Notes under the pieces: generated by a model | Databases searched by the model: none | The model's input: the letters and a program-made list of their open reading frames with translations, nothing else | What the model was told of the DNA's origin: nothing | Position numbers and translations under genes: made by a program | Assembly: GCA_013368375.1 (NCBI GenBank) | Contig: JAACJP010000007.1 | Span: 930,001-994,000, forward strand | Origin: Tricholomella constricta | Lineage: Eukaryota; Basidiomycota; Agaricomycetes; Agaricales; Lyophyllaceae | DNA: 64,000 bases | Reading direction: 5' to 3' | Shown: piece after piece, positions 5,561 through 42,455 of the stretch | Layout: each line of letters begins with the position of its first letter | How positions within the stretch are numbered: position 1 is the stretch's first letter

Positions 5561-6717
5561 GGAAAGTACGCGAAGTTCATCGTTCCACACCAAGCCTTGT
5601 GGGACCGGAAGAGAGCGAGATAGCAATCGATAATCCGAGAAATTTGCGTTCCCGGGAAGGCCTAAGGGGATCACAGATAAAAGGACATGCAGTGGCAGAA
5701 GCGCCCAGTGATGTGCCACACAACGGCGTCGACCAACAGCGGGCATGAGGCTCGATCTTGAGTGGCAGTCGCACGGAGAGTTTTGACAGTAACATGGAGT
5801 CAAAAGTAGAGAACACACATGAGGATCTCCCATAGGCGGGCACCATAACGCGAGCAGCAAACGGCGTGCACGCCTCATTCTCAACGCCACATTGAAGACT
5901 CTCACCATCAGTTTCATTTTTTGGACAGAAGAGCTTTTGAAGACCTGCAGAGTTACCGGAGAAAAGGAACCAGATGATAGCATGAAGGTGATGATGACAC
6001 GAGGAGTGGTGGGCGAAGAGCAAGGATGGGTGATCTTGAGGGGTCGCCCAAAGCGGAAAGCTATTTGGCTTTGTTTCGATCACACATCACGTGCTCTAGC
6101 CTTTGCGACCTCAAGCCTTGAACTTTGGTTTTTGTTTTCGGCGTTAGCATCCGACTTTATCGCGGTCCTCAGGCCCAGACGATGGCGATGCAATTCTGGT
6201 GAGTATTCTTGTTGTTTTCGCGCTATCCTGCCAAATCAGACTTTGTAGATATACGGCCTCCAAATACCCCCGTATCGATTTTTGAGTACATCCAACTTGA
6301 ATCGAAAGCCCTAGGCCTACTTTCAGACTCGTCACTCAAGGAAATATTAATCTCGCGAATTTCATGATGCGCGATCATTGGTCATAGCCCTGAAAGAAAC
6401 ATATGGGGCAGAGAGTCTCTTCGCTTTTCCTCCGTTTTCTTTTGCGACCGACAACTTGAACGAATCGATGTGTAGTCCTCCAGCATAAATTTGAAATGAA
6501 CAGGGGGACGACGCAGGCAAGGCACAGCGCGGCTTGGCCGGCACGATCGTAAGTTTTCCGTCCCGTTTTTTCGTAAAGTCGCGATCAGTGATCACCCACG
6601 CGGCTATCAGCTGTTAAATATTTTCGTCGCCACGTCTCGCGCGTTTCATCGTGACTTATCCTTTCTTTCTTTTCCCCACATCCTTTTCCCTCCTTTCGCG
6701 ACTTGGATCCGCATCCA
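5561..6717. other. gap before the desaturase gene, no convincing gene
   Basis: Two overlapping minus-strand open frames (5366-5983, 5577-6083) have no recognisable motif and run into the tandem repeat. The last few hundred bases before 6718 are pyrimidine-rich and probably contain the promoter and 5' leader of the desaturase gene. Confidence 0.35.
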
Positions 6718-8488
6718 ATGTCCCAAAAAGCCGACCGCCATGAGCAGACTCCTGTCGTTGTTCCCAATCTCTCTATGAAAGAGCTCCTCGATGTCATCCC
6801 GTACGTGAATGTCCTACAATTCGAAAGAAGAAACTGCTCTTACTCTGCCTGTAACCCTGCCAGCTCACACTGTTTCCAACGATCGGCTGTGAAATCCTTC
6901 GCCTATGCGTGCGCGCCTTTCAGACTTAAATTCGCGCTGCAATTAATCCTTCCCCTCCAGCTTCTGGGACTTGTTTGTCATCGCATGCATTTACAAAGCG
7001 ACACTCTACGCAGAAGCCGCTATCCCCTCATTACCATACCCCGCCTTTCACGGGTTTGCCTGGGTGGCGCTTTGGGCTTTTTATAGCTTCTGGGTCGGGC
7101 TCTTCGGCATGGGGTTATGGGTGGTTGCCCACGAATGTGGGCATCAAGCCTTCTCGGAATCCAAGCAACTGAACAATGCTGTCGGCTGGGTTCTTCATTC
7201 TGCGTTCGTCGAAAAGTTTCCTTCTTTGCTTTGTGACTCAATTTATTTTTTGTATTATCCAGACTTGGTGTTCCGTACCATGCCTGGAGAATCAGCCACG
7301 CAAAACACCACGCTGCGACGTGCCACATGTCGCAGGACCAGGTTTTTGTTCCTTGGACGCGCAAGGAAATGAAGGCGCCCGAGTTCAACCCCTCTGGCGA
7401 GGATATCTTGGGATCCACTGTCTCGCAAGAAATAAAACGCGAACTGTGGGAAGCTCTCGGGGACTCCCCAATCGGGGCGAGCTTGCAATGTGTAATTTAT
7501 CTCGTGCGTGAACTCCTATCTATGTATCTCGATTTTGACAACTTATTAACGGGTTGTACAGCTTGGAGGGCTGCCAATGTACCTCCTTTATAATACTGCT
7601 GGCCAACCTAGATACCCTAAAGGCACTAATCGTCAGTATTAATTCTTCACATCTGACTATAAACCACGCTGATCTCTGTTGTTTATCTAGACTTCAACCC
7701 TACATCGCTCATTTTCTCGCCCCATCAGCATGGGCAAATCGTCTGGTCTGACTTCGGAATTTTCCTCTGGCTTGCAGCCATCGTTGCAGGTTGCTTCCAC
7801 TGGTCATTCCCTGTCGTCTTCCGCGTCTACCTTGTCCCTTACCTCTGGTGCGTCATTCCCATCGGCCCTGGATGGCATCCATACTTACATGCACCCCTGC
7901 AGGGTCAACCATTGGCTTGTCCTGATTACGTTCCTGCAACACACCGACCCTTTGATCCCCCACTATCGCGCCGACATCTTCAACTTCCAGCGCGGCGCTC
8001 TTTCGACCTTGGATCGCAGCCTCTTGGGCGACCTGGGCCCCGTCATGGGCTGGATCGCAGCGCATGCGACCAACGGAATTTCTGAGACACACGTTCTTCA
8101 CCATGTCACCAGCAAAATTCCCCACTATCACGCGTAGGCCACTTTCTTTTCCTTTGCAGGCGAAGCCTAAATTGTGTAATCGAAACAGATGGGAAGCTGC
8201 CGCAGCTCTACGCAAGAAATTGGAAGGGCATGGAATTTATAGGCAAGGAGCGCCGGGAGGATGGAGGGAGGTGTACCGCGTAATGAGGGAATGCAAGGTC
8301 AATCCTTTCGCTGAAGTTGGCTGCTTGTTCTGTCCTGACAATTTTTTCTGTGTTGTATCGAACAGTTCGTCGAGGACGAGGGCTCTGTGGTTTTCTATAA
8401 AAATGCATATGGCGTCGCTGCAGCACGCCCGGTCTTCCAGGACAGCGCGGAGGATGGGAATGATTCTGGGGTCGAGTTCAACAAATAG
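6718..8488 (+). CDS. FAD2: delta-12 fatty acid desaturase
   Basis: Nine exons: 6718-6800, 6864-6908, 6961-7203, 7263-7503, 7562-7631, 7691-7847, 7903-8133, 8189-8297, 8366-8488, giving 433 aa, the usual length for fungal delta-12 desaturases. The three histidine boxes of membrane desaturases are all present: HECGH (about residue 100), HAKHH (about 136) and HVLHH (about 343). Hydrophobic segments lie in the expected places, for example WVALWAFYSFWVGLFGMGL before box 1 and FGIFLWLAAIVAGCFHW before box 3. The family sits in the ER membrane and converts oleoyl to linoleoyl chains, drawing electrons from cytochrome b5. The C-terminus FVEDEGSVVFYKNAYG is typical. The ATG at 6718 is the first in frame. 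No lesions seen. Bifunctional delta-12/delta-15 activity cannot be excluded from sequence. Confidence 0.95.
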
Positions 8489-9302: not shown

Positions 9303-10006
9303 ATCAATATGCGGCAAATCCTGAGACGGGGGCCTACATACAGACCTTTGCGCCCTTGAGACGAAATTGAAACGCAGTCGGCCATGTATCTGGACTTGCA
9401 ATGCGGAAAACCTCCATGGTTGTTGACCTGGTTGTGGATCCACAACCATCCGTCATGTCCGAACCCTCGGAGGAGACTGAGGGAGGAACCTCAGGCTAAA
9501 GTCATCTCCAGAGAATAAAACAACACACTAATGTCATCTTCATCCAGAATGTCTTTGGCATCGAGGATGGGCCTGGGGACGGAATTGGACAAACCGAGTG
9601 CTGTACGTGCGGACCACTTGGTCATGGCCTACAGAAAGAAGTAAGCCAGTAAAAATCAATATGCGGCAAATCCTGAGACGGGGGCCTACATACAGACCTT
9701 TGCGCCCTGGAGACGAAATTGAAACGCAGTCGGCCATGTATCTGGACTTGCAATGCGGAAAACCTCCATGGTTGTTGACCTGGTTGTGGATCCACAACCA
9801 TCCGTCATGTCCGAACCCTCGGAGGAGACTGAGGGAGGAACCTCAGGCTAAAGTCATCTCCAGAGAATAAAACAACGCACTAATGTCATCTTCATCCAGA
9901 ATGTCTTTGGCATCGAGGATGGGCCCGGGGACGGAATTGGACAAACCGAGTGCTGTACGTGCGGACCACTTGGTCATGGCCTACAGAAAGAAGTAAGCCA
10001 GTAAAA
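9303..10006. repeat. 352 bp tandem duplication, two copies
   Basis: The block starting ATCAATATGCGGC at 9303 is repeated at 9655 with an exact 352 bp offset. I found only single-base differences, for example near 9356/9708 (T/G) and 9527/9879 (A/G). Each copy carries an RdRP intron end, two RdRP exon pieces and the intron between them, so the duplication doubled the conserved core of the relic. Confidence 0.95.
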
Positions 10007-29800: not shown

Positions 29801-31486
29801 AAGGACGACGCCGTTCCCCATTATTACTCTACTGAGGCATCTTGGGAGTTGAAGTCTGGCAACAAAGTCCTCGCTGTTCGCTCTGATGGCGCCGGTGAAT
29901 TCACTGGCGGCGATTTGAAGGCCCATTTCATATCTCGTGGCATCCAACATCAAGTTACCGCTCCCTATGCTCATTCTCAAAATGGGAAAGCTGAGCGTTA
30001 TATTCATACTCTTGAGGAAACCGCTCAAACTCTTCTCGCCGATTCTGGTCTTCCTCCAAGTTTTTTCGGCGACGCCGTTTTGACTGCTCAATACCTTCGA
30101 AATTGTTTGCCTACATCCACCCTCCCTCCCAACACTACTCCTTACTCGATTATGGAAAACTCCACTCCGGACTTGTCCCATCTTCGCGTATGGGGTTGCC
30201 AATGCTTTACCCTCATTCCTTCGGAAATCCGCACCAAAGGAGGCCCCAAACGTTTTGAAGGTATTTTCGTTGGATATGAGGAAAACCGGATTGGCTGGCG
30301 AGTTCGCGATCTTAATGGCAAATATCATTTTTCTCGAGATGTCGTTTTCAATGAAAATGTTCGTGGTTCTCTCCGCCACCAAAATCATACCTCGTCTCCT
30401 CCTGCCATCACGATCTCATCGTCGTCTCCTGAACTTTCCATGGAACCGAATTTGCCTGACGCTGGGCCCGTTCCTTCCCCACCTGATCCCCCTCGTCGAT
30501 CTACTCGTCCTATTGTCCGTACTCCTCAGGGTTCCGACTACGCTACCACTATCAAGGACAGAGATGACCGCCTTCATCGTCTTCGTACCGCTAGGGCTTC
30601 ACGCTCTGATTCCGCCCATCCTCAACAGTCTCTAGCCGCCATTGAAGACTTCGTTTCTCTTCTTTCTGCTCAGTCATTTACCCCGCCGGAAGACGACCTT
30701 GTGTCCCACGAGACTGAAGCTATCCTACTCTACCAATCCCTTGCCGCGAATCCTGATCCTATTCGTCGTCGTAACGCTCCCCGCTCTTTCAATCTTGACC
30801 TTCCTCCGGCAACTTACGAAGAAGCTCTTCTTCGACCCGATGTCGACATTTGGAAGGCTGCAATGCAGCGCGAATATGACAGTCTTCAGGATCTTGGCGT
30901 CTTTAAACCCACCATCCTTCCTCCTGGCCGCAAGGCGATCGGTTTACGTTGGGTCTTTGACTTCAAGTACAACCCCGATGGATCAATCATTCGTGGTAAA
31001 GAGAAAGCGCGCATAGTGGCACGAGGTTTTTCCCAACGTCCCGAAGATTATGGTACTACCTACGCTCCTGTCGCCAAACTCACCAGCATCCGTATCGTCC
31101 TTGCCTTCGCTGCTCTTCATAACCTCGAACTTCAAACTTTGGATGCGAAAACGGCTTTTCTCAATGCATTGCTTTCCCATATCATCTTCGTCAAACAGAT
31201 TCCCGGTTTTTCTGAAGCCAACCCCCATCTTGTCCTCCTCTGCATTCGCGCTTTATACGGTCTTAAACAATCATCCCACGAATGGTATTCGTTACTGCGT
31301 CGCGTTCTCGAAAGCATCGGCCTTATTCGTTGTGAGGTGGACCACGCCGTATTCTATGCACGCTTTTCATCGCCCCCCGATCCCTCTATTCCCATGCCCT
31401 CTGATGGCTCCGACCTCCTCATCATCATGCCCGTTCACGTCGATGACGGCCTCGTGGCGACAAATTCGGAACCTCTCTACTTGTAA
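26891..31486 (+). CDS. Copia gag-pol polyprotein, 5' part, interrupted in RT
   Basis: A single open frame from ATG 26891. The first 330 or so residues are very rich in Pro, Ser and His. A gag-like region follows (DWSKWYSSVMQVIEATGLFD near residue 345). A CCHC knuckle, CSNCGALGHVAGNC, is near 600. The protease motif is DSGCT at about 711. The integrase has a LWHRRFGHLG zinc region with CIPCLIGK near 870-920 and a catalytic core with MDTCGPF, SDGAGEF and NGKAERYIHTLEE. RT begins with the WVFDFKYNPDGSI region near 1350; its active-site motif is HVDD. The frame runs into the Gypsy LTR and stops at TAA 31484-31486. The rest of RT and RNase H resume at 42456. The polyprotein is dead in this copy only because of the insertion. 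Confidence 0.93.
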   Translation: MATSPHSGQDPVQPDNSTVLSPPSSSLHGHSTTGTTIVPFPQGGLSFHQSFDLPSASVSSRYNVPNSWSQTQFLASSSSHFDMNTAQTQMPSLPVPHALSSVSTPTPYLKPTSFPTGYFRPDQSHPFSALSAPASSGGLSYASSTHYPLVHHPSTFSAQAAPVPSPSVPSIHPSLHPTSPPIIMSRPPSHSISPHAPVPLHPIPFDNLNRIISPVIRHTPTPEPPAPPYFQHNLSPRPLSARSLPSPVLTFYCPPQPPPFYPPSRPASLPPTPAHTPLHPFLHVRQLSSLPNTPPSRPRSLHSPIVLPPPHLPPVDPPPVRQPALSTYSKPDFPSLSSIPLLSSANDWSKWYSSVMQVIEATGLFDHIVDVLPTNYLLDPTAYPSFPPTIDIANYSQADLDRYKTWWAQDDIVSFILVGKLGPIPASLIPSKRDAWGNPQRIARDVLRILRTKYGVYDATSAAAVRDSVLSKKVVGGDVTSYVDMWRKAVLQVEGSHWDFSSYEKVQRFADGLPRTYEYEPLRVQIREGFNTHPPHGIISFYDASQAALNIELASRRLSNSHPATSRRSHPSPSTSSTTAPVPPASSDSTPSSTTATRPRCSNCGALGHVAGNCWEPGGGDVGGRDRYLAANPTRPRAHVATVPESSPLDPIIETSESSEIESASVPSSAYLDSEASDPPPLDTAFYLDFANAADPHVLASLADQYNVILDSGCTVHIIRDRKFFWTYDTSLAIPVGTANCGVLKTLARGETRFRVEIDGIYQIFCLKDCLHAPDVPINLLSVGSMTERDMCLVFEKDVTSIHFPDSLPHLSDHTINATVVRRLSFLHLDFVLPPGASSVPPPESLISFPAVELQESDLLFLRVDPSPSLWHRRFGHLGIDATRAVLTKSYATGVKYDGPFVDSHCIPCLIGKHPQRPFDHFAHRAERVCELLHMDTCGPFPVQTPHGKTFFHTILDDYSNYGSTSLLAHKDDAVPHYYSTEASWELKSGNKVLAVRSDGAGEFTGGDLKAHFISRGIQHQVTAPYAHSQNGKAERYIHTLEETAQTLLADSGLPPSFFGDAVLTAQYLRNCLPTSTLPPNTTPYSIMENSTPDLSHLRVWGCQCFTLIPSEIRTKGGPKRFEGIFVGYEENRIGWRVRDLNGKYHFSRDVVFNENVRGSLRHQNHTSSPPAITISSSSPELSMEPNLPDAGPVPSPPDPPRRSTRPIVRTPQGSDYATTIKDRDDRLHRLRTARASRSDSAHPQQSLAAIEDFVSLLSAQSFTPPEDDLVSHETEAILLYQSLAANPDPIRRRNAPRSFNLDLPPATYEEALLRPDVDIWKAAMQREYDSLQDLGVFKPTILPPGRKAIGLRWVFDFKYNPDGSIIRGKEKARIVARGFSQRPEDYGTTYAPVAKLTSIRIVLAFAALHNLELQTLDAKTAFLNALLSHIIFVKQIPGFSEANPHLVLLCIRALYGLKQSSHEWYSLLRRVLESIGLIRCEVDHAVFYARFSSPPDPSIPMPSDGSDLLIIMPVHVDDGLVATNSEPLYL

Positions 31487-31701
31487 GGACGCCCACTATC
31501 TTATCTAATCTTGGTTATCTAATCATATCTTATCGAGACGATTACGCTATTGTTTGGCAACACCTTCTGGTGTTGCCTATTTAATTCATTACATTAATTA
31601 AGTATAAACAACCTTGTACACCTATACGTAGCAATCGACAGACTTGTCAAGCTTACGTCTAGTGTGAACAACAAGGTCCCAAATTCTGTAACCCCGTTAC
31701 A
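31482..31701 (+). repeat. Gypsy 5' LTR
   Basis: 220 bp, TGTAAGG...GTTACA. It contains the 9 bp hairpin GGCAACACC/GGTGTTGCC with loop TTCT (31556-31577). No clear tRNA-complementary primer site follows; the next bases are a T-run (31702-31708), so self-priming or an unfamiliar primer is possible. Confidence 0.95.
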
Positions 31702-31810
31702 TTTTTTTAAGCTACCTTGCTTTCTATTGCTGCGTACCCACGACGTTACGCAGACCCACATTCCATTTAGAACACCCATCATCAAAAAGAACCAACGAGA
31801 CCGAGACCCG

Positions 31811-34800
31811 ATGACAACAACTCCCACATCCGGAAAGAGCCGAACTCCGGTCCTCGAGGATGCGCTCACAGCGCATCCTCCATCACAACTTCCACTGCAA
31901 CCAGTGGAAGTCGGATCAGTCGCTGGTGGACAAAGTTCACCAGCGCAGAATACACTAGGAGTAGAATCGGAGGAACTTTGGCCAATAGCAAGCACCAATG
32001 TGCCTGGGAGCTTGGCCGACGAATTGGCCAGGTCACATCGACCTGGCCCCACGGCGGGAAGCAGATGGCCAGACAGCCGTCTGTCGAATAGAGCGTTCGG
32101 GGCGTCCACCCTGAGCATAATCAAGATGGAGTCGGACGAAGACGACTTGTCCGACCCCGAGGCTAATGAAGAAGAGGCCAGCGAAAGGGAACTGCTTGCG
32201 CTTCAAGTGAAGCAATTCTGGGACACCACCGATGTGGTTAGCGAGCATCGGCGAAGGCGACTGGAGGAACGAGCGGATAGGCTCGTTCTGCGATCTACCG
32301 GAGCACAATCCGTTGGAGAAATGGTCGCACAAGCATATGCCGACCGATACTTGGAAGCGCTGTCCGTAGTAGTTACGGAATACAGGAAGAAGTACCCTAA
32401 GGGAACTTCGAATTCAGCAGTCAGCTCGATCGCTGGGACGCCTGTACCTAAGAAAGCCTCGTTCAACAAAGGAAAAGGTCGTTGGGATGACCTCTTCACT
32501 CCTCAAGCAGTGGCTGCCGGATCGAACCAGCCTCTTGATGAGGCTGCCATGGCAGTATCGGCGCTGCATCAAGCGCGACAGTTAGGAGAATCTGACGACG
32601 ATTATCGTCGTCGGTCTGCGGCAGCGAAGCGCGAAAGAATGACTCGTGAAGAGCATCTTGCGCAACCACAGGGATCCAAATGGGCCCCTGTTAGTGAGTC
32701 TACGTTAGACCCACCCACGGAACGTAAGTATACAACCACGCAAGCAGCTGGCGACGAAAGCGCGCCAGCTATTCAAGTACCTATGGATGCGAAGGATGGC
32801 CGTGTTCCATTAGCGAAAGATTGGAACAACCGAGTCGCATATCAGCGTTTGAGAAACGCTGATTTATCACGGAGCAAGTTCACGAATTATGATGATCAAG
32901 GAGTCGTCTTCGAAGGACATATGCCCGTAGATGAGATGGCGAGGCAATGGGCCTCGCAAACTCAAGGTTCGGATGGTGGACTGGGAAATGGGGCCGTCGG
33001 AAAACATAATACGACGGCGACGGCTAACGGCCGTCAAGACATGCGGGTTCGTATAAATGAACCCACTTCACACGCTCAGCCTCGATTTCAAAGTCGAGGC
33101 TACTCAATGCCTGACCCGATTCGCAGGAGTCAATCAATTGCGGACGGAATATATGCTGCTGGAGAGCAGCATAAAACTAAGATGCACGAACGGTTGCATC
33201 AACTGATACACGAGCGACTGGCTGTACGCCTATCGCTCCCTGATGGTATGAAATCTCGCCGTGCGGACTCAAAGTCCGTAGGCACTTATAGTGGAAGCGC
33301 CAAGTTTGGCGAATTGGAAGAATGGCTAGCCAGCCTTGTCGTGATGCTAGCCGTGAGCCAGTTTGGAGGAGCAGAACGCGACCAAGAGCGCGTTCTGATA
33401 ACATCTGAGTTCCTTGATGGTGAAGCTCGGAAATGGTACAATCGCCATGTTATCCATGTGAACCGCGAAAAGCAGTCCTGGACGTTTGAAGACGTCATAC
33501 TAGGGCTGTACGATCGGTTCGTGCTGCCTTCAACCATGCAGGATGCTCGTAACGACTTTAACGCCGTTACCTATTCGGCGAGCAAAGGCATACAAGGTCT
33601 GTATGACGACCTTGTGGATCATGCCATGAACATGGCAGCAAGAACGGATGATTGGACGTTCCTGGAGAAATTTCTCAAAACACTTCCGCGCGATATGCGG
33701 AAGGCATTATTCGATGACGGGCTATCACCCGAAATCAATACAGCCCAAGAGTTCCTAGCGGTGGGCCTAGCACTTCAAGCCACCCAGAAAACGGCTGATT
33801 ACTTTGAGCGGACCATAACCGCTCAGCGAAGTCAACCGAGCCAAATGCGGAAACCAGATGGAGGGCGAGTAAACGCTCCACACAATACTTTCAACAGGCC
33901 TCGACGGGTGTATGGCGCAGTAAATGAAAAGCCATATGTCAAGCCAGCGTATCAGGATCAACCTGGACGTGGAGAGCAAAAGCCCCACGTCGAAAAACCA
34001 GCGATGAAGACAGGAGATCGTCCGCGTTACGATCAACCTAAAAACCACGATCATCACAACCATCCTCCGGGGGAAGTGTGCTTTAATTGTGGAAAACTAG
34101 GGCATTTTGCAAAAGATTGCAAACAGCCCAAGAAACAGCGAGCGTTCCTAAGGGCCGCACGTACAGCGGCACCTGACGCGGCAAGTGAGGCGGACGATGA
34201 AGACACGTCTCCTGAGGACCCGGACGGACGAGACAATGGACGCCCTGATACAGAGGCGGACAATGAAGACGAAGGCGATGAGTTCGTAGACATGGAGGTC
34301 TACGAAAATGAATACTATGCTCGGGACGATGAGACCGAGCGTATGTTTGCAATGACAGAAGTAATTGCGTCAGAAGAACGCAATGATAAACCACCAGTTC
34401 GCAAAGTTAAAGTGCGGACGGGGAGGGACAAAATTGCTCGTCCCGTAGTTCTGATAAAGGACAAGGAGTGCCTTGTCACCTACATTAACGTAGGTGGACA
34501 TGAGGCTTGGACCCTTTGGGATTCCGGGAGTACAACTACCGGACTTACGCCGTCATTCGCTCAAGTGGCCGATATTCGAGTATTTCCGCTGGAGGATCCA
34601 TTAATCCTCCAGCTCGGGACTAAAGGAAGTCGGGCCACAGTAAACTTTGGTACGACGGTGGAAGCCGCTCTGCCAGGGTTTAAAGGCAAGGTTTACATGG
34701 ACCTTGCTAACTTTGATCGATACGACGTGATTATAGGCACGCCGTTTATGCGCGCAAATAACGTCGTGCTGGACTTTAACCGTGACGAAGTGGTCGTCAA

Positions 34801-34891
34801 TGGAGTCGCTATACCAGCGACTAAGGTAAAAATGGAGGATACCGATGGCCGAGCTAGACGCCATCGGTCATTGGAGAAACGAAGAGAATGA
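31811..34891 (+). CDS. Gypsy gag-protease polyprotein (ORF1)
   Basis: 1026 residues from ATG 31811 to TGA 34889-34891. A charged N-terminal region of about 480 residues comes first. The retrotransposon gag domain spans roughly residues 495-660 (FGELEEWLASLVVMLAVSQF, LDGEARKWYNRHV, FLEKFLKTLPRDMRKALFDD). One CCHC zinc knuckle, CFNCGKLGHFAKDC, is near residue 756, followed by an acidic stretch. The aspartic protease has LWDSGSTTTGLTPSFAQ near residue 904 and the family's second conserved block DVIIGTPFMRANNVVLDF. The frame stays open past the stop into pol, see the UGA entry. An open frame extends upstream into the LTR without another good start. Confidence 0.92.
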   Translation: MTTTPTSGKSRTPVLEDALTAHPPSQLPLQPVEVGSVAGGQSSPAQNTLGVESEELWPIASTNVPGSLADELARSHRPGPTAGSRWPDSRLSNRAFGASTLSIIKMESDEDDLSDPEANEEEASERELLALQVKQFWDTTDVVSEHRRRRLEERADRLVLRSTGAQSVGEMVAQAYADRYLEALSVVVTEYRKKYPKGTSNSAVSSIAGTPVPKKASFNKGKGRWDDLFTPQAVAAGSNQPLDEAAMAVSALHQARQLGESDDDYRRRSAAAKRERMTREEHLAQPQGSKWAPVSESTLDPPTERKYTTTQAAGDESAPAIQVPMDAKDGRVPLAKDWNNRVAYQRLRNADLSRSKFTNYDDQGVVFEGHMPVDEMARQWASQTQGSDGGLGNGAVGKHNTTATANGRQDMRVRINEPTSHAQPRFQSRGYSMPDPIRRSQSIADGIYAAGEQHKTKMHERLHQLIHERLAVRLSLPDGMKSRRADSKSVGTYSGSAKFGELEEWLASLVVMLAVSQFGGAERDQERVLITSEFLDGEARKWYNRHVIHVNREKQSWTFEDVILGLYDRFVLPSTMQDARNDFNAVTYSASKGIQGLYDDLVDHAMNMAARTDDWTFLEKFLKTLPRDMRKALFDDGLSPEINTAQEFLAVGLALQATQKTADYFERTITAQRSQPSQMRKPDGGRVNAPHNTFNRPRRVYGAVNEKPYVKPAYQDQPGRGEQKPHVEKPAMKTGDRPRYDQPKNHDHHNHPPGEVCFNCGKLGHFAKDCKQPKKQRAFLRAARTAAPDAASEADDEDTSPEDPDGRDNGRPDTEADNEDEGDEFVDMEVYENEYYARDDETERMFAMTEVIASEERNDKPPVRKVKVRTGRDKIARPVVLIKDKECLVTYINVGGHEAWTLWDSGSTTTGLTPSFAQVADIRVFPLEDPLILQLGTKGSRATVNFGTTVEAALPGFKGKVYMDLANFDRYDVIIGTPFMRANNVVLDFNRDEVVVNGVAIPATKVKMEDTDGRARRHRSLEKRRE

Positions 34892-34897
34892 CTAAAA
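34889..34897 (+). promoter_or_regulatory. in-frame UGA-CUA between gag and pol, possible readthrough site
   Basis: ORF1 ends in TGA (34889-34891) followed by CTAAAA. The next 1299 codons, to 38791, are open in the same frame and encode pol, so one stop codon is all that separates Gag-PR from Pol. UGA followed by CUA is a known leaky stop context. It could be programmed readthrough, which would set the Gag to Gag-Pol ratio, or a point mutation of an arginine codon. Confidence 0.6.
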
Positions 34898-37800
34898 GTA
34901 ACAGTAGAAGATGACGATGATCCTGATAATGAGGGTAGGCCGATAAACAGCCTACCGAAGGATCATCCAGCACTTTTATTATCCGAGGAAGAGTTTCAAG
35001 AAACTCTTAAGGAGGGGGATAAGCCACCTCCGAAGAAGAGAAAACCCCAACGACGACAGCAGAAGGCACAAAACGAGCCTTCGAACGAACGAGCACAGGT
35101 TGACGAGCCATGCGAAGAACATCAGCGCGATAATGAAGCGCGTAAGACGAGCGGGGCCGACAAGGATACGGAATCAGAGCCGTATACGAATACGAGTAAT
35201 CGATCATTTTGGGATAGACCAAATCCACATCCACAATATGAGTGGATGTTCGACCCACGGATGCCGCAAGAATGGAACGCAGTAATAGCGTCAATGCGGG
35301 CTCACGAAGGAAGAAATGTAGGCACGCGAGGACAAGCGTACCGAAATCCACGGCCTGAGGAAGTATCGGAGCCAACGGAAATGAATTTTCCGGTGAATAT
35401 ACAACGGGCTAAACGGCCGTTGTATCGGTTACCAGTGAAGGATGAGAGTGACTTTGCTCTCGTAAAACTACGAGCTAGGTTTGATGTTAAACCTAGCAAT
35501 AAAGACACAGCGCACATTCGCGCTGCAAGAACGGTGAACAGAAAAGGTAAGGCACCCAATGGAGGCCTTACCGCGGAAGATTATCCACGACTTCGCCAGC
35601 AATGGCATGACGAATTCGAAGATATGGTGGGTGGTACGAAACAACAGCTACCACCCTGGCGGGAAGTCAATCACGAGATTACTCTCATCGATGATGAGAA
35701 ACAGTACCAGTACCACGCGCCGAGGTGCCCAATGTCCCTTCGCGAGGAATTCTACGCGAAGGTCAATCGGTATACGGATTCTAAATGGTGGGAGCCTCGT
35801 TCGGTGAAGCAAGCAGCGCCGCTGCTATGTATCCCGAAAAAAGACGGCTCCCTGAGAACACCCTTGGACGCACGCCAGCGTAACAATAACACGATCAAGG
35901 ACGTTACGCCCTTGCCAGACCAGGAAGTTATTCGCGAAGATGTCGCTAGGGGAAAAATACGGTCCAAAATTGACTTAACGGATGCGTATGAACAAGTACG
36001 CATCCTTGAAAAAGATGTACATAAAACCGCCTTCGCAACGATAGCGGGAACATACATCAGTAACATCATGCAAATCGGGGACTGTAATGCTCCCGCGACA
36101 TTTCAACGATTAATGACGTCCATCTTTCGGGACGTCATTGGGAAGTTCATGCATGTATACTTGGACGATATATTCATATTCTCGAACTCTATTGAGGAAC
36201 ATGAAGACCACTTGCGAGTTGTGTTCGAACGATTACGCGAACAATCGCTCTACCTTAAATGGAAGAAATGCGAATTGTATTCGGATCGCGTTGATTGCCT
36301 TGGTCATATTATTGACGACCAAGGAATTCACCCTGACGCCGACAAACTGGCACGGATCCGTGACTGGAGGATACCACGGAATTACAACGATATCCAACGA
36401 TTCGTTGGACTTGTTAACTATCTGGGACAGTTTCTCCCAGATATATCTGCATACACTGGTCCACTAATGGCGATGACCGAGAATGGGTCGCCATTTTATT
36501 GGAGACCAATTCATCAGCGATGCTTTGAAATGATAAAGCATATATGCTGCACAACGCCAATTATTCGGCCGATTCAACCGAAGACAGGCGAACCAATTTG
36601 GATTATCTGTGACGCCTCCAAGTCAGGCGTCGGTGCGATGTATGGACAAGGACCTACATGGATCCAAGCACAGCCGGCTGGATTCATGTCCAAAAAATTC
36701 ACTAATGCACAGCAGAATTATGCTGTGCATGAACTCGAGACCTTAGCTATTCTCGAAGCGTTACTTAAGTGGGAGGATAAACTTGTGGGCTATAAAATCC
36801 ACATCATTACCGACCATAAAGCCCTCGAATTCTTTAAGACCCAGGTGAATTTATCACCTAGGCAGCGTCGATGGATGGAATACATGTCGCGATTTAACTT
36901 CGACATAACCTATGTGAAAGGCGAACTGAACAAAGTCGCCGACTGTCTATCGCGATACTTCGAGAGCGATAACCATCAAGATCGTTACGACGTCCACGAC
37001 TTCGTAGCTGCTGATGCTAGAATCGATCCTACTGGTGAAGATCTACCAGTACCACGATACCATGAAATCGTGGAAAAAGTAGTTGAGATTCGAGCGATGA
37101 AAGACGTAGAAATACGTCGAAGCAAGCGTCTTCAAGAACGCCAGGAGGATCGAGATGTCGAGGCTCAGATAATGGAGGCTGCGGCACCAAGTACCGCATC
37201 CGGAACATCGTCACACCCTCAGAAAAGCATGAGTCCAACCGAACGGGAACGTACGGTCGGAGATATTGTCCTCGGGAGGGACACAGTTTCTCCTCCCCCA
37301 GACAAAACGGATGAAAAGATCCGTCACGACGTTATCCTTGGATACCCAAAGGATAAACTATTTTCAGTTATTCTCGCTAACCCCAGGGACTTTCGTACGT
37401 TCACCACGAAAGACAATCTCATTTGGACCACGAACGCTATAAATGATAGCGTTCTATGTATACCGCGAGAACCCGAGCTCATCACCACAATTATTGAGCA
37501 AGCCCATAAAACTATGGGCCATTTCAGTGCCGAACGGACTACTGAATATATTCGACGATGGTATTGGTGGCCATCACTAGCCACGACCGTGCGTACGTTT
37601 TGTAAAACGTGCGAGTACTGCCAGCAGATCAAGACGTCGAATCAAAAACCGTCAGGGAAACTACACTCCCTGCCAGTACCAACTAAGCCTTGGGATTCTA
37701 TCGGAATGGACTTTATCGGTCCATTTCCAGAATCAAAGGGATATAATTACCTATGGGTAGTAATTTGTCGTATGACGAGTATGGTGCATATGATACCCAT

Positions 37801-38791
37801 ACATACGACGATGACAGCAGCCCAATTATCATGGGTATACTTACGGGAGATCGTCAGGCTCCATGGCCTGCCAAGCTCGATCGTAAGCGATCGAGACTCT
37901 AAGTTTACTTCACGCTGGTGGCGCGAACTACATAAGTTATTAGGAGCTAAGCTCCTAATGTCGACATCTTTCCATCCTCAGACGGATGGACAAACGGAGC
38001 GAGCCAATCGTAGTATTGGCCAGATATTTCGTGCCGTTGTGAGGCATGACCAAAAGGATTGGGTAGATTGTATACCCATGGCTGAGTTCGCGATAAATGC
38101 GAGCGTATCGGCTACTACCAAGTTCGCTCCATTTGAGCTGAATAGTGGATACATGCCGTCCATGTTGAAAGAGATACGCTCAGACAGCGTAATACCGAAG
38201 GGAATTCGAGAGTATGTGGAACGCGCATTGCAGAATATAGCGGAGGCGCATGACGCTATAATCGAAGCGCGCGTATTTCAAACGCGCGAGGCAAACAGGC
38301 GCCGATCCGCTGGTCCAGAAATAAAGGGGGGAGACTTGGTGTATTTATCCACCAAGAACTTGAACCTCCCCAAGGGACGCGCCCGTAAATTGTGCCCGAA
38401 ATTCGTCGGGCCCTACAAAGTGCTGAAGGCCATGCCAGACACGTCGAACTATACGTTGGAATTACCTACGGCACTCATGGAGCGCCGGATACATCCAACA
38501 TTTCATATATCGATGTTGCGCCCATACTACGCAACGAATGATACAATGTTCCCTAATAGAACTCATCCGGAGCCCTACGATTTTGGGGCGCCGGATAATC
38601 ACAAATGGTTTGTAGAAGATATTTTGGGCCATAGATGGACCCAAAATAATACTGTGGAATATCAGGTTAGGTGGAGCCTGGGAGACACCACCTGGGAACC
38701 GCACACCAATTGTAACAAGTTAGCGGCACTGGATCGCTACTTGGAACTACAAGGGGTGAAGAGCGCGTCGAGATTACCGCGACGAACCTAG
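34892..38791 (+). CDS. Gypsy pol: reverse transcriptase, RNase H, integrase, chromodomain-like tail (ORF2)
   Basis: Open in the gag frame directly after the UGA; the first internal Met in a good context is at 35246. RT shows PLLCIPKKDGSLRTPLDAR, KIDLTDAYEQVRI and the active site YLDD at 36158. RNase H follows with ICDASKSGVGAMYGQ, ELETLAILEAL and ITDHKALEFF. The integrase zinc finger is HKTMGHFSAERTTEYI with CKTCEYCQQI; the catalytic core has MDFIGPFPE, VSDRDSKFTSRWWRELHKLL and DGQTERANRSI. The C-terminal WFVEDILGHR with VRWSLGDTTWEPHTN is a chromodomain-like module, as in chromoviruses, which can direct integration to chromatin marks. No break in the frame. Confidence 0.94.
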   Translation, partial: LKVTVEDDDDPDNEGRPINSLPKDHPALLLSEEEFQETLKEGDKPPPKKRKPQRRQQKAQNEPSNERAQVDEPCEEHQRDNEARKTSGADKDTESEPYTNTSNRSFWDRPNPHPQYEWMFDPRMPQEWNAVIASMRAHEGRNVGTRGQAYRNPRPEEVSEPTEMNFPVNIQRAKRPLYRLPVKDESDFALVKLRARFDVKPSNKDTAHIRAARTVNRKGKAPNGGLTAEDYPRLRQQWHDEFEDMVGGTKQQLPPWREVNHEITLIDDEKQYQYHAPRCPMSLREEFYAKVNRYTDSKWWEPRSVKQAAPLLCIPKKDGSLRTPLDARQRNNNTIKDVTPLPDQEVIREDVARGKIRSKIDLTDAYEQVRILEKDVHKTAFATIAGTYISNIMQIGDCNAPATFQRLMTSIFRDVIGKFMHVYLDDIFIFSNSIEEHEDHLRVVFERLREQSLYLKWKKCELYSDRVDCLGHIIDDQGIHPDADKLARIRDWRIPRNYNDIQRFVGLVNYLGQFLPDISAYTGPLMAMTENGSPFYWRPIHQRCFEMIKHICCTTPIIRPIQPKTGEPIWIICDASKSGVGAMYGQGPTWIQAQPAGFMSKKFTNAQQNYAVHELETLAILEALLKWEDKLVGYKIHIITDHKALEFFKTQVNLSPRQRRWMEYMSRFNFDITYVKGELNKVADCLSRYFESDNHQDRYDVHDFVAADARIDPTGEDLPVPRYHEIVEKVVEIRAMKDVEIRRSKRLQERQEDRDVEAQIMEAAAPSTASGTSSHPQKSMSPTERERTVGDIVLGRDTVSPPPDKTDEKIRHDVILGYPKDKLFSVILANPRDFRTFTTKDNLIWTTNAINDSVLCIPREPELITTIIEQAHKTMGHFSAERTTEYIRRWYWWPSLATTVRTFCKTCEYCQQIKTSNQKPSGKLHSLPVPTKPWDSIGMDFIGPFPESKGYNYLWVVICRMTSMVHMIPIHTTMTAAQLSWVYLREIVRLHGLPSSIVSDRDSKFTSRWWRELHKLLGAKLLMSTSFHPQTDGQTERANRSIGQIFRAVVRHDQKDWVDCIPMAEFAINASVSATTKFAPFELNSGYMPSMLKEIRSDSVIPKGIREYVERALQNIAEAHDAIIEARVFQTREANRRRSAGPEIKGGDLVYLSTKNLNLPKGRARKLCPKFVGPYKVLKAMPDTSNYTLELPTALMERRIHPTFHISMLRPYYATNDTMFPNRTHPEPYDFGAPDNHKWFVEDILGHRWTQNNTVEYQVRWSLGDTTWEPHTNCNKLAALDRYLELQGVKSASRLPRRT

Positions 38792-38919
38792 AATGTGGCG
38801 CGGTCATGTGACCACGGCGATCAAGAAAATTACATAACCATCAAAAGTTATGACAGAAGGTTAAATATGTTTGGCGCTAGACGCGCAACCGATTTTCAAC
38901 CCTCTCAACACAAACCAAC

Positions 38920-41874
38920 ATGTACCCCAGCCAAGTACCAACCTCCAGCAACGACGCGATTCGGGGCGGCGACAGCCGCACCGACCAGCAAAATTTGAAC
39001 CCGGGGCCGAGTTCAAGTGGGGAGGGAGTGCAGGGGCGCGCGGAAAATGCGCCCCTGCCCCCAACTTACATGGGCTCGCAGCCCCAATTATACCAATATT
39101 CTCCGGTTGGCCATATGAGCCAACCGCCCCATCAGGGGCAACAAACATTTCCGACGGTTGGCCATATGAGCCAACCGCACCACCAAGGGCAACAACCACC
39201 TATGGGTGGTTTTTACCCGCCAGGGCTGGCATTCCAACAGATGCCATCAATGGCGGGTTTCATGGGGTACCCGCAACCGACGTGGTACCCCCAAATGCCC
39301 ATGCAGCCTGTACCGCACAATACGCGGTACAACGAATCGGAGAAGATGGAGGTAGACGACCAAAGTCGTCTGCAAGCAAATGTCCCGCCGGCGCAAGTGG
39401 TGCGCGGCGAACCGGTGCGGCAACATGTTGCACCGAATGCAGACGACAAAGCGTCGTCGGCGTCGAGTTCGCGGAGGATGGCAGACGATCGTAGAGTATC
39501 GCCTGCGTCAAGTTCGAGGAGACCATTCGCAGACGATGGTCTCCTTTCTTCTCTCTTGGATCGATTGGAAGACGCGGGTATTCACCGCGAATTTTGTGAT
39601 TTCTTGGACGATGGAATGGCGCAGCTGGTTATAACCCAGCTGCTTGATGCATACGATGGAGTTTGCGCGGATTTGAGACGCGTGAAAGCGAGAGAAGCGG
39701 CCATGGCTGAGCAACTCAGCCTGGCAAGAAAACGGCCGGCAGTAGTATCGCCGGATCGCGGGGAGGGACCATCGTCCCGACCCATAAAAAGGCAGCAAAT
39801 GGAGGTGCGTCGAGAAGAACGCACCTCATACGAGCCGCGACGACAAGAGAGGAGCGAGCCCAGGCGTCCGGAACGACGCCTGGAACAGGAGAATCGGCGG
39901 TACAACCGCCACCCCGACCAGGAAGTGTGGCGTGACGAACGCCCACTTGATTATGGTTCTCAACGGGAAGAGCGCCGAGAGGATCAAGGGACGCGCGAAG
40001 TGCGCCCCTTACCTGCTCGAGAAATCGAGCGCACGGCGTCGACATCGTCGACATCAGCGGAAGCAAAGCCGCAAAACCTATCCGGAGCGTTACCGCCCCC
40101 GGGAGAAAGCCGGGTGCGGAACCCAGAACGAGGTTCTCAGAAGAAGGAACCTGTTGGCAAATATACTTTGCCAGCGCCAGCCCCTGCACCACCTAGTACG
40201 ATGGTGCAGCCCCCAACGCCGCCATCCAAAGGCAAACAGAAGGCATCGGATCCATATGCCGAGGCTATGGATGAATCGGACTGGGGCGAGTCGTCTGACG
40301 ACGACAAGCCTGTCAGCAAGAAGAAGGCTGCCGGGCAAAAGCAGCATCGCGAGAATATGGCTCGCAAAGCTGAGAAGGAGATGCCGGGGCGGATCCCTGA
40401 CGAGCTCGGGGTGGTCTTCATCAACGACCGCCACGAGAGGGACAACCGTTTTTGGGATATGCTAGTGCGGACGATATATGTATCGTCCGCCCAGAATCGT
40501 GCCTACGCACTAGGCACCGCAGCGCGAGTGTCCGAAAGCGAGTTGGGGACGGGACACAATTCTCGTCCCCCATCGGGACGGCTATATGCCGTCGCACCAC
40601 GCGGGTTCCCAATGAACCCTCGTGAAGTTGATCAGTTGTATGCACTGATCAACGATCGGCGCCCCGGCGTGACGGATGAAGAGCGGGCAGAGGCCTTTAT
40701 GCTCTTTAGGGAGTTCCGGCGAGTCTCCCTCTCGGTAGCGCCCCATTTGCGCGACCGATCCATGGCTCGAGCAGCCATGGATGAATTTAGAAGCGTCAAC
40801 CGACCGTTCGATACACGGTCACCCATTTGGCAGGCCGCGCCAATTAGGCGGCCTGGGAGGGCATTCGAATATAGGCCGGACAAGCCTACACGAGGCGCTG
40901 GCCTGCCTCAGCCAGGCCCCGACCATGCCCTCGATGTCGAGCACTGGTGCCGACATATGATTCACCATGGGCGTATTGGTTCAAAGAACCAATACGGAGG
41001 AATCGTCATGGACTACCGGTTCCGCGTACATAGGCGCGGAACTTGGGGATACTTGTTGGCGAATGTACTAGCGCCAACTACCCACAGCATGCGGTCATGG
41101 TTCATGCGACTTTTCGCGACCATTACTGCGCGGCCATACCTCTACGCAGAGGCTGTGGCTGCCTATAACGAGGCCAACCCAGATCGGCCTTTCACACCGA
41201 TCGAAGGCCCTGAGGTTACCATACCTCGCATCCAAGTGATCCCTCCGGAGGTGCGGATCACTGAACAAGGTGTCTTGCAACACCTTATCAACATTGGTAT
41301 TCCAGTAAGCTGGATACACCATAGCTACACTTATGGTCTACATTATTTGGACCATAACTACTCTAACTCAGGTCCCTATAAGGACCTGTTCCGCAATGTT
41401 GACGACGATCGAGTTCGTCGTCTAGATGAAATGGGTGTTCCGCCCGCCATCCCTGAGTGGGATGGGTGGTACCATCCCACCACCGACGACATCACGCGCA
41501 TCCAAACACTGATGCACGTGGAATTCCAGACCGAATCACTAGACTGTCTAGTGAGTTCGGAATGGATGTTTGTGGGTGAAGACCCACACTTCCGAGGACT
41601 CCGTGTTCGGGTGGGGGAATATCTCCCCCCAGGCCTGCATCACCCAGCTTCATCGGGATCGACGTCCATCAACGTCGAAATGGCGGACCCGGCGGCAGCT
41701 ATACCTGCCCCCGCGACACCCTCCACAGTTGTGGCAGCTCCAACTGGAGCTACCGAAACCCAAGTGGACCCCGTGTCGGCCCTTACAGGGCCTTTATCAC
41801 TGGCGGTGATTACCACCAGCCAGGGTCTGGTGGACAACAACACCACCGACCCCGACACAGTGATGGAGTCATAG
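38920..41874 (+). CDS. Gypsy ORF3, long protein of unknown function
   Basis: 984 codons from ATG 38920 to TAG 41872-41874, located where some Gypsy elements carry env, but I see no signal peptide, no membrane segment and no fusion-protein features. The N-terminal 130 residues are rich in Pro, Gln, Gly and Met with the repeated text VGHMSQP. The middle (about 140-520) is charged and disordered, rich in Arg and Glu (EVRREERTSYEPRRQERSEP). From about residue 520 the composition becomes globular: VVFINDRHERDNRFWDMLVR, HALDVEHWCRHMIHHGRIGS, RRGTWGYLLANVLAPTTHSM and VSWIHHSYTYGLHYLDHNYS. It ends in a low-complexity Ala/Thr/Pro tail. I do not recognise a family. The preserved frame in a young element suggests a function for the element. 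Confidence 0.85.
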   Translation: MYPSQVPTSSNDAIRGGDSRTDQQNLNPGPSSSGEGVQGRAENAPLPPTYMGSQPQLYQYSPVGHMSQPPHQGQQTFPTVGHMSQPHHQGQQPPMGGFYPPGLAFQQMPSMAGFMGYPQPTWYPQMPMQPVPHNTRYNESEKMEVDDQSRLQANVPPAQVVRGEPVRQHVAPNADDKASSASSSRRMADDRRVSPASSSRRPFADDGLLSSLLDRLEDAGIHREFCDFLDDGMAQLVITQLLDAYDGVCADLRRVKAREAAMAEQLSLARKRPAVVSPDRGEGPSSRPIKRQQMEVRREERTSYEPRRQERSEPRRPERRLEQENRRYNRHPDQEVWRDERPLDYGSQREERREDQGTREVRPLPAREIERTASTSSTSAEAKPQNLSGALPPPGESRVRNPERGSQKKEPVGKYTLPAPAPAPPSTMVQPPTPPSKGKQKASDPYAEAMDESDWGESSDDDKPVSKKKAAGQKQHRENMARKAEKEMPGRIPDELGVVFINDRHERDNRFWDMLVRTIYVSSAQNRAYALGTAARVSESELGTGHNSRPPSGRLYAVAPRGFPMNPREVDQLYALINDRRPGVTDEERAEAFMLFREFRRVSLSVAPHLRDRSMARAAMDEFRSVNRPFDTRSPIWQAAPIRRPGRAFEYRPDKPTRGAGLPQPGPDHALDVEHWCRHMIHHGRIGSKNQYGGIVMDYRFRVHRRGTWGYLLANVLAPTTHSMRSWFMRLFATITARPYLYAEAVAAYNEANPDRPFTPIEGPEVTIPRIQVIPPEVRITEQGVLQHLINIGIPVSWIHHSYTYGLHYLDHNYSNSGPYKDLFRNVDDDRVRRLDEMGVPPAIPEWDGWYHPTTDDITRIQTLMHVEFQTESLDCLVSSEWMFVGEDPHFRGLRVRVGEYLPPGLHHPASSGSTSINVEMADPAAAIPAPATPSTVVAAPTGATETQVDPVSALTGPLSLAVITTSQGLVDNNTTDPDTVMES

Positions 41875-42219
41875 GTCGGGGAGACAACTTAATCCCCCCG
41901 TCAACGAACCGACCTCGACACGTAGGGCGTACCGCCGGGCCGACCGCCATTGTCAGGTGCAGACCACCTGACTCCCGAGGAGCAATCCGCAGGTTGCGTA
42001 TTAACGCAACATTGGATGTCCTCACCACCATTCTTTGCCGCACGGCACTTTGAGGCCGTGCAGTGGCGCTAATGCATCCACTACTCGTTAAGTCAAGAAT
42101 ACGTATTATACCTACGTATTCTTGCATTATTTGATAGGTCTAGGTCGCCGGGACCTAGACCCTCCTTTTACTCTCTTTTTCTGCCCAACTCCCTGGTGAA
42201 GATCGCTACACGCGATCTT

Positions 42220-42228
42220 AAAGGGGGG
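42220..42228 (+). promoter_or_regulatory. Gypsy polypurine tract
   Basis: AAAGGGGGG, two bases before the 3' LTR; the expected primer site for plus-strand DNA synthesis. The preceding 41875-42219 is non-coding yet still filled with hairpins. Confidence 0.85.
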
Positions 42229-42230
42229 TA

Positions 42231-42450
42231 TGTAAGGACGCCCACTATCTTATCTAATCTTGGTTATCTAATCGTATCTTATCGAGACGATTACGCTATT
42301 GTTTGGCAACACCTTCTGGTGTTGCCTATTTAATTCATTACATTAATTAAGTATAAACAACCTTGTACACCTATACGTAGCAATCGACAGACTTGTCAAG
42401 CTTACGTCTAGTGTGAACAACAAGGTCCCAAATTCTGTAACCCCGTTACA
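42231..42450 (+). repeat. Gypsy 3' LTR
   Basis: 220 bp, one base different from the 5' LTR (G at 42274 against A at 31525). Followed by the target duplication CTACT at 42451-42455. Confidence 0.95.
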
Positions 42451-42455
42451 CTACT

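What the first reader, a model, noticed from the sequence alone, without database searches (positions are those of the whole stretch)
31482..42450. A whole Gypsy retrotransposon built as a chain of short perfect hairpins
Seen directly: perfect inverted repeats with arms of mostly 6-12 nt and loops of mostly 2-11 nt follow each other through both LTRs, gag, pol, ORF3 and the non-coding tail. Examples: CGTATTGGTTC/GAACCAATACG at 40972-40996, CAAGAATACGTA/TACGTATTCTTG at 42094-42124, GAGGATGCGC/GCGCATCCTC at 31856-31880. By a rough chance estimate, a 9 bp perfect stem with a loop of ten or fewer should occur less than once in 11 kb; I verified well over ten. The pattern ignores the borders of codons, ORFs and LTRs, so it acts on nucleic acid, not protein. 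The surrounding Copia and host genes lack it by eye. Inference: either a mutational process peculiar to this element (hairpin-templated repair or template switching during reverse transcription) or selection for structured RNA or single-stranded DNA, for example in packaging, RNA stability or evasion of silencing. I know of no description of such an element.
Basis: partly seen in the sequence, partly recalled or inferred. Interest (0 to 1): 0.97.

Follow-up and report, generated by a model that had tools for sequence, protein, structure and literature searches.

The report
Retrotransposon packed with perfect hairpins
A fungal jumping gene and its relatives in the same genome carry many times more short, perfectly paired hairpins than chance along their protein-coding sequence, apparently kept by a weak pressure that acts while the element copies itself.

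Summary
The 10,969-bp Gypsy element holds 105 perfect stems (arm >=7, loop 3-12) against 5.2 in dinucleotide shuffles; its three ORFs hold 91 against 6.6 after codon shuffling, maximum 14 of 240. The enclosing Copia pol and the loci tested from unrelated Gypsy families show no excess.

The rule in this element is sharp: arms 5-10, loops almost all 3-12, no excess at loops 13-25, no consistent wobble preference. Two sister families in the same genome (pol 57.6% and 68% identical) share the excess, mostly at other positions, with third codon positions near saturation. The trait is therefore renewed.

Substitutions private to single copies ignore hairpins. Those shared by replicating copies lose hairpins about half as often as expected and gain them 1.7 times as often; the evidence is moderate.

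Template switching is not supported, and simulated selection for folding energy does not reproduce the pattern.

Best reading: weak selection for local perfect stem-loops in the single-stranded replication intermediate, resembling genome-scale ordered RNA structure of RNA viruses. Hairpin-templated correction during replication remains open.

The parts
31482..42450 (+). Ty3/Gypsy LTR retrotransposon carrying the hairpin array, inserted into the pol of a Copia element
   Evidence: LTR pair; domains; Copia RVT_2 profile stops at position 156 of 244; weak RVT_2 match, profile 187-242, resumes in frame after the element, E 0.009; hairpins start and stop with the element
31477..31481 (.). 5-bp target-site duplication CTACT, left copy
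42451..42455 (.). 5-bp target-site duplication CTACT, right copy
31482..31701 (+). 5' LTR, 220 bp, TG...CA
42231..42450 (+). 3' LTR, 220 bp
31598..34891 (+). gag-protease reading frame (stop to stop, 1097 codons) with CCHC zinc knuckle; the DSGSTTTG protease-like motif is a recalled reading
34889..34894 (+). TGA CTA stop context between gag-pro and pol, which share one frame; candidate stop-codon readthrough site (context recalled)
34892..38791 (+). pol: reverse transcriptase, RNase H, integrase, Tf2-1-type SH3; chromodomain match below its curated cut-off
38881..41874 (+). ORF3, 997 codons, no Pfam domain; two homologues found, both from Lyophyllum
42220..42228 (+). purine tract AAAGGGGGG before the 3' LTR, probable plus-strand primer (role recalled)
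31556..31577 (.). hairpin in 5' LTR, arm 9 loop 4 (same hairpin at 42305-42326 in 3' LTR)
31856..31880 (.). example hairpin in gag, arm 11 loop 3
34841..34868 (.). hairpin ending 20 nt upstream of the gag-pro stop, arm 9 loop 10
40972..40996 (.). example hairpin in ORF3, arm 11 loop 3
42094..42124 (.). longest perfect stem, arm 12 loop 7, in the 3' untranslated stretch

Best explanation
A clade of fungal (probably Agaricomycete) Gypsy retrotransposons in this genome carries an element-wide array of short, perfect stem-loops, renewed and kept by a weak, diffuse force of about one log unit per base pair that is seen only in replicating lineages. SHOWN: the array is real. It exists in both subfamilies and in the pol of two sister families, is absent from the unrelated elements tested, turns over by single substitutions, and is neutral in private changes of resident copies. 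INFERRED: the force is selection for local stem-loops in the single-stranded replication intermediate (genomic RNA or first-strand cDNA). Small autonomous hairpins of at most about one helical turn would keep the molecule compact, free of long duplexes, and less accessible to host small-RNA silencing or nucleases, or more easily packaged. [quoted passage not shown]
For: (1) 105 vs 5.2 hairpins; three ORFs 91 vs 6.6 in codon shuffles, max 14 of 240. (2) Second subfamily (89% nt): 82, 84 and 74 hairpins in three 9.9-kb loci. Sister families: 19 vs 1.3 and 10 vs 1.5 per 4.3 kb. Four loci of distant Gypsy families (33-39% aa): 0-1 vs 0.9-1.8. (3) Third positions are 34-38% identical between families, yet density is kept. 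Exact stem centres (arm >=6) shared: 4 of 16 with L052 (0.11 expected) and 2 of 33 with L051 (0.22 expected, but shifted controls reached 3). (4) Polarised substitutions without the two mosaic copies, arm >=6: shared by replicating copies n=134, loss 18 vs 31.8+-5.1, gain 10 vs 5.8+-2.2; synonymous n=89, loss 10 vs 22.4+-3.8, gain 6 vs 4.2; private n=367, loss 78 vs 87.9+-7.2, gain 14 vs 14.8. (5) Log-enrichment per added pair 1.06, 0.76, 0.72, 0.85, 0.79 from arm 5 to 10, then none. The gain and loss ratios give scaled coefficients of 1.2 and -1.05, similar in size. (6) Folding-energy excess over codon shuffles 23.9-25.9% (350-nt windows; Copia 2.7%). Published GORS values are about 15% for SARS-CoV-2 and 23.4% for the highest coronavirus (PMC7642675, passages read; other shuffles). 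That paper also reports unbranched sequential stem-loops, poor positional conservation, less variable paired sites and avoidance of paired runs over 14.
Against: Thermodynamic selection does not reproduce the pattern. Random sequences driven to a 28-32% energy excess gave 0-5 such hairpins per 2.4 kb against 23 in the element. Driven for local folding (span 26-32) they reached the density only at 118-185% excess, against about 40% in the element, and with 3-5 nt loops favoured. With RNA energies, GU-interrupted stems outnumbered AC ones 22 to 2 at similar density. Natural counts are 3:10 (element), 9:7, 8:8, 7:9 (second subfamily), 2:6 (L042), 7:2 (L051), 1:1 (L052); L051 alone does not differ from the RNA simulations (p=0.30). 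In L051 the loop limit is also softer: arm >=7, loops 13-40, 13 vs 4.8 (L052 8 vs 5.4). Lineage changes show no wobble preference (67 GU:71 AC against 40:51 private, p=0.50; counts, test). The selection signal is moderate. Fisher p for fewer losses than private: 0.018 (synonymous, arm>=6), 0.054 (all, arm>=6), 0.093 (all, arm>=7), 0.17 (synonymous, arm>=7); for more gains: 0.10 (all, arm>=6), 0.21 (synonymous, arm>=6), 0.044 (all, arm>=7), 0.47 (synonymous, arm>=7). No RNA, small-RNA or protein data exist here, and one genome only was examined.
Confidence: 0.5

Rival explanations
1. Replication-linked hairpin-templated correction: during reverse transcription or in hairpin-forming cDNA a mismatch in a stem is copied from the other arm, so perfect stems are written and kept by biased conversion without any benefit to the element.
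For: Near-strict Watson-Crick perfection and no consistent wobble preference on either strand; loop limit near 12 in this element; force seen only in replicating lineages; compensatory pairs exceed doubly broken ones (10 vs 3 of 759 pairs in L039).
Against: At pairs where both sides can change synonymously only 4 compensatory changes against 15 one-sided ones among 134 (arm >=7); by my rough estimate about 10 would be expected under unbiased correction, so this is weak. No multi-base clusters in arms, though single-mismatch correction would not make them. The unrelated Gypsy loci tested lack the pattern, so it would have to be specific to this clade's replication machinery.
Confidence: 0.25
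2. Classical template-switch mutations (quasi-palindrome to palindrome) created the hairpins in single multi-base events.
For: The mechanism makes perfect hairpins and is documented (PMC8794818, PMC8604942; passages read). One candidate place, 41235-41262, differs by several bases in both arms between subfamilies.
Against: Clusters of 3 or more changes within 8 nt inside one arm: el against L039 3 of 135 (6.5 expected, two of the three at one stem) and 0 of 135 in the reverse view (5.7 expected); L041 2 of 105 and 0 of 105 (5.1 and 4.6); L042 1 of 30 and 0 of 30 (1.4 and 1.1). Choosing stems perfect in one sequence lowers these expectations by perhaps half, but gives no excess either. Loops closer to their inverse: 1 of 52 changed. 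Protein not disturbed in pol.
Confidence: 0.07
3. Hairpins are dispersed protein-binding or packaging sites, for example for Gag or the arginine-rich ORF3.
For: Spread over the whole element at about 7-11 per kb in the ORFs, threshold-like rule, stem limit near one helical turn; loops A/T-rich (A 0.336 vs 0.289 outside).
Against: No strong shared loop motif: best 4-mers 2.6-fold in 27 of 170 loops, which the A/T bias of loops may explain. Positions mostly not conserved between families.
Confidence: 0.13
4. Neutral remnant of one hairpin-rich ancestor, now decaying.
For: Sharing between the two subfamilies (45 of 95 stems identical) is roughly what neutral decay would give once one allows that stems were chosen for being perfect in one sequence.
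Against: High density in sister families near third-position saturation, with mostly different positions; deficit of losses in polarised lineage changes.
Confidence: 0.05

Closest known systems
[quoted passage not shown]
   Same: Pervasive excess folding energy over codon-shuffled sequence through the ORFs; sequential unbranched short stem-loops; density conserved while positions turn over; long duplexes avoided (PMC7642675, passages read).
   Different: LTR retrotransposon of a fungus. Stems are perfect Watson-Crick with no consistent wobble preference, loops flat from 4 to 12 with a hard cut in this element, similar on both strands, and not reproduced by energy selection in silico.
Template-switch-made hairpins (quasi-palindrome correction)
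   Same: Perfect inverted repeats with short spacers.
   Different: No excess of multi-base events, 1 of 52 changed loops closer to its inverse, pol protein undisturbed.
Ty3/Gypsy (Metaviridae-type) LTR retrotransposons with Tf2-1-like SH3
   Same: LTRs, 5-bp TSD, CCHC Gag, RT-RNase H-integrase order, Tf2-1-like SH3.
   Different: Hairpin-filled coding sequence, an extra 997-codon ORF3, and a TGA CTA stop between gag-pro and pol in one frame.
Probed LTR-retrotransposon genomes Ty1 and Ty3
   Same: Short-range pairs dominate the structure shared between compartments in Ty1 (PMC9503155, passages read).
   Different: The passages shown to me do not mention such an array; for Ty3 (PMC11381356) my terms returned only reference-list lines. 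Neither genome was tested here.

Membership tests
GORS | Folding energy lower than codon-preserving shuffles across coding regions | tested here: met
   23.9%, 24.7%, 25.9% in gag-pro, pol, ORF3; Copia 2.7%; sister pol 24.1% and 20.0% (150-nt windows, plus strand)
GORS | Many sequential unbranched stem-loops whose positions turn over between relatives | tested here: met
GORS | Paired sites less variable in replicating lineages | tested here: met
   (polarised; moderate, Fisher p 0.018 to 0.17); the simpler comparisons are biased by choosing stems perfect in one sequence
GORS | Structure arises by general RNA folding stability, wobble pairs included | tested here: not met
   for the main family; sister L051 leans to GU, 7 vs 2, and has a softer loop limit
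GORS | Structure formed in the RNA in cells | not testable with these tools
   needs chemical probing
Template-switch hairpins | Multi-nucleotide changes in one arm templated by the other | tested here: not met
Template-switch hairpins | Spacer inversions | tested here: not met
   1 of 52 changed loops
Ty3/Gypsy LTR retrotransposon | LTR pair with TSD, Gag CCHC, RT-RNase H-integrase order | tested here: met
Ty3/Gypsy chromovirus | C-terminal chromodomain in integrase | tested here: inconclusive
   PF00385 at 21.3 bits, cut-off 25.1

The most novel reading that the evidence does not exclude
The force acts on DNA strands of the replication intermediate, not on RNA stability. In this clade first-strand cDNA is either kept as a string of one-helical-turn hairpins or is continually proofread into perfect hairpins by its own replication machinery. 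The nucleotide sequence of an 11-kb multi-gene element is thereby written by a Watson-Crick-only, loop-limited (about 3-12 nt) drive, independent of its proteins.
Probability: 0.3. Interest if true: 0.93.

Novelty: new variant of a known kind. Interest (0 to 1): 0.82.

Why it matters
If confirmed, mobile elements of a DNA genome carry ordered structure at least as dense as that reported for structured RNA viruses, kept in multicopy genomic DNA where selection and mutation can be told apart by comparing private with replicating-lineage changes. That makes an old question testable: what pervasive genome structure does, and whether it is made by selection or by a copying drive. The sharp arm and loop limits give a quantitative target for a mechanism.

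Tried and rejected
Chance, codon usage and composition were rejected with dinucleotide and codon shuffles. A protein-driven cause was rejected for pol: residues under arms are about as consensus-like as elsewhere. Codon-phase bias in pol was weak (22/22/17 for arm>=6). The script stopped with a division error after its arm>=6 rows and the two arm rows for arm>=7.

Fixed differences between subfamilies (arms 67 vs 87.1, loops 66 vs 38.4, gain 30 vs 16.1) and slower arms at fourfold sites first looked decisive. I no longer rest on them: stems were chosen as perfect in one sequence, which by itself can halve arm divergence. The two subfamilies also appear to recombine, and copies L042 and L046 are mosaics, so the polarised test was repeated without them (134 and 367 sites instead of the 289 and 571). 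The compensatory-change argument is likewise weaker than I first thought.

Relatives were sought in viral contigs (none confirmed) and genome contigs (none confirmed). Protein homologues (650 hits among 8000 scored candidates, 120 listed) come without DNA, so the trait could not be tested in other species. Sister families are represented by one 4.3-kb pol locus each. The energy simulations are few (four runs, four).

Literature: ten searches of an open-access library; I saw listings (in only part of the papers found) and none of the listed papers describes such an element by title or abstract start. One search found no paper. Subscription papers are mostly missing from that library and preprints are not held.
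Full report
CHECK OF THE OBSERVATION. In the element (31482-42450) there are 105 stems with arm >=7 and loop 3-12, where 100 dinucleotide shuffles give 5.2 (maximum 10); for arm >=9 it is 31 against 0.42. Codon-preserving shuffles give 2.1-2.4 per ORF against 30, 31 and 35, or 6.6 (maximum 14 of 240) against 91 for the three ORFs together. The Copia pol has 2 against 1.75, the right flank 12 against 12.6, and the left flank 29 against 16.5 with a maximum of 31 in 20 shuffles. The array begins and ends with the element.

THE ELEMENT. It is a Ty3/Gypsy LTR retrotransposon inserted into the pol of a Copia element: the Copia RVT_2 match stops at profile position 156 before it and a weak match to positions 187-242 resumes in frame after it (E 0.009). 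It has a 220-bp LTR pair, a CTACT target-site duplication, a gag-protease ORF with a CCHC knuckle, and a pol ORF with RT, RNase H, integrase and a Tf2-1-like SH3. A 997-codon ORF3 has no Pfam match; among 8000 scored candidates its two hits are from Lyophyllum atratum (62%) and L. shimeji (43%). A second subfamily is about 96-97% identical in pol and 83-84% in ORF3, and 89% at the DNA level.

THE RULE. The excess lies at loops 3-12 and arms >=5: ratios 1.5, 4.4, 12.6 and 21 for arms 5, 6, 7 and 8, and 1.0 for arms up to 4. Loops 0-2 add a few long stems (arm >=7: 9 against about 1.9). Loops 13-25 show no excess at any arm length, and loops 26-60 none except 12 against 3.5 at arm 8. In coding DNA the log-enrichment rises by 1.06, 0.76, 0.72, 0.85 and 0.79 per added pair from arm 5 to 10 and then stops. 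Two of 104 neighbouring stems overlap. Stems with one mismatch show no consistent preference for GU over AC: 3 against 10 in the element, 9 and 7 (L039), 8 and 8 (L040), 7 and 9 (L041), 2 and 6 (L042), 7 and 2 (L051), 1 and 1 (L052). In folded RNA the GU share falls by a similar amount on both strands (7.5% against about 10.7% shuffled on plus, 10.8% against about 14.4% on minus; six shuffles).

WHO HAS IT. Seven near-identical copies carry 30-32 stems per 3.6 kb (L005 is the window itself). Second-subfamily loci carry 82, 84 and 74 per 9.9 kb. Thirty loci of other Gypsy families carry 0-1 each, but they are mostly copies of few families. Two sister families found with a Phanerochaete protein and fetched over pol have 19 against 1.3 (L051, 57.6% aa) and 10 against 1.5 (L052, 68% aa); four distant Gypsy loci (33-39% aa) have 0-1 against 0.9-1.8. 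In the sisters the loop limit is softer: at loops 13-40 L051 has 13 against 4.8 and L052 8 against 5.4 (arm >=7). Third positions are 34-38% identical between the families, so the hairpins are unlikely to be a relic. Exact stem centres are shared by only 4 of 16 (L052; 0.11 expected) and 2 of 33 (L051; 0.22 expected, control maximum 3). Density is inherited; positions largely are not.

WHAT KEEPS IT. Copies were mapped to the element (19 rows). Private substitutions fall on arms as expected (96 of 580, 93.2 expected). Substitutions shared by two or more copies, polarised with the second subfamily and leaving out the mosaic copies L042 and L046, lose hairpins 18 times (31.8+-5.1 expected) and gain them 10 times (5.8+-2.2) among 134; among 367 private ones, loss is 78 (87.9+-7.2) and gain 14 (14.8) (arm >=6). 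For synonymous changes loss is 10 of 89 against 38 of 157 private (Fisher p=0.018 at arm >=6; 8 of 89 against 25 of 157, p=0.17, at arm >=7). Gains alone are mostly not significant against private ones (p 0.10 and 0.21 at arm >=6, 0.044 and 0.47 at arm >=7, all and synonymous). The loss and gain ratios correspond to scaled coefficients of -1.05 and 1.2, close to the 0.8 per pair from the enrichment. Selection and biased conversion would give the same numbers. An earlier, larger-looking signal from fixed subfamily differences is inflated by choosing stems perfect in one sequence, and I discount it.

MECHANISM. Template switching predicts multi-base changes and spacer inversions (PMC8604942, passages). 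Clusters inside arms number 3 and 0 of 135 against 6.5 and 5.7 expected, and 1 of 52 changed loops is closer to its inverse. One place, 41235-41262, remains a candidate single event. Conversion of single mismatches stays possible: 10 compensatory pairs against 3 doubly broken, but only 4 against 15 one-sided at pairs free on both sides. Selection for folding energy does not by itself make this pattern. Random sequences driven to a 28-32% energy excess held 0-5 such stems per 2.4 kb against 23 in the element. With a pairing-span limit, stems reached the density only at 118-185% local excess, where the element has about 40%. Loops of 3-5 nt were favoured, and for RNA energies there were 22 GU- against 2 AC-interrupted stems (element 3:10, p=4e-5; L039 9:7, p=0.018; L051 7:2, p=0.30); with DNA energies 0 against 1 (one run). 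The main family thus behaves as if exact Watson-Crick stems within a loop range were favoured, more like DNA strands or a recognising machine than RNA stability. Sister L051 leans towards the RNA-like form.

COMPARISON. The nearest known phenomenon is GORS: SARS-CoV-2 has about 15% energy excess (23.4% the highest coronavirus), several hundred stem-loops with poorly conserved positions, and frequent interruption of paired runs over 14 (PMC7642675, passages). GORS transcripts induce less interferon and PKR response (PMC3950689, abstract). Here the excess is 24-26% with 350-nt windows (the published values used other shuffles). What it works like: GORS. Whether it is a member: three features met (one of them with moderate statistics), the wobble-tolerant stability feature not met in the main family, in-cell structure untestable. 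None of the papers listed by ten searches describes such an element by title or abstract start.

VERDICT. A real, strong feature shared by a clade of elements in this genome and maintained there, with an agent not yet identified. Selection on local structure in the replication intermediate is most likely (0.5), hairpin-templated correction next (0.25).

Noticed in passing
34889-34894: gag-pro and pol share one frame and are separated by a single TGA followed by CTA, a context known (recalled) for stop-codon readthrough. The same TGACTA is in all five copies checked (L039, L040, L042, L043, L045) and directly before pol in sister family L051; the L052 stretch held does not show it.
   Followed up: partly
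38881-41874: ORF3 (997 codons) found two homologues, both Lyophyllum; it has an arginine/glutamate-rich middle and a conserved C-terminal half.
   Followed up: partly
element coordinates about 5000-7000 (window about 36480-38480), between subfamilies: In the copies tabulated, informative differences between the two subfamilies number 0-8 per kb in this part of pol but about 109-178 per kb in ORF3, so they appear to have exchanged sequence recently; L042 and L046 are mosaics.
   Followed up: partly
9429-9448 and 9781-9800: The same 20-bp perfect palindrome TGGTTGTGGATCCACAACCA occurs twice, 352 bp apart.
   Followed up: no
31702-31720: No TGG-type tRNA primer site follows the 5' LTR (it reads TTTTTTTAAGC...), so the primer of reverse transcription is unclear.
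   Followed up: no
loops of the hairpins: Loops diverge faster than sequence outside hairpins between subfamilies (66 of 669 vs 439 of 7538 sites); a real excess or a sign that much of the rest is also constrained.
   Followed up: partly
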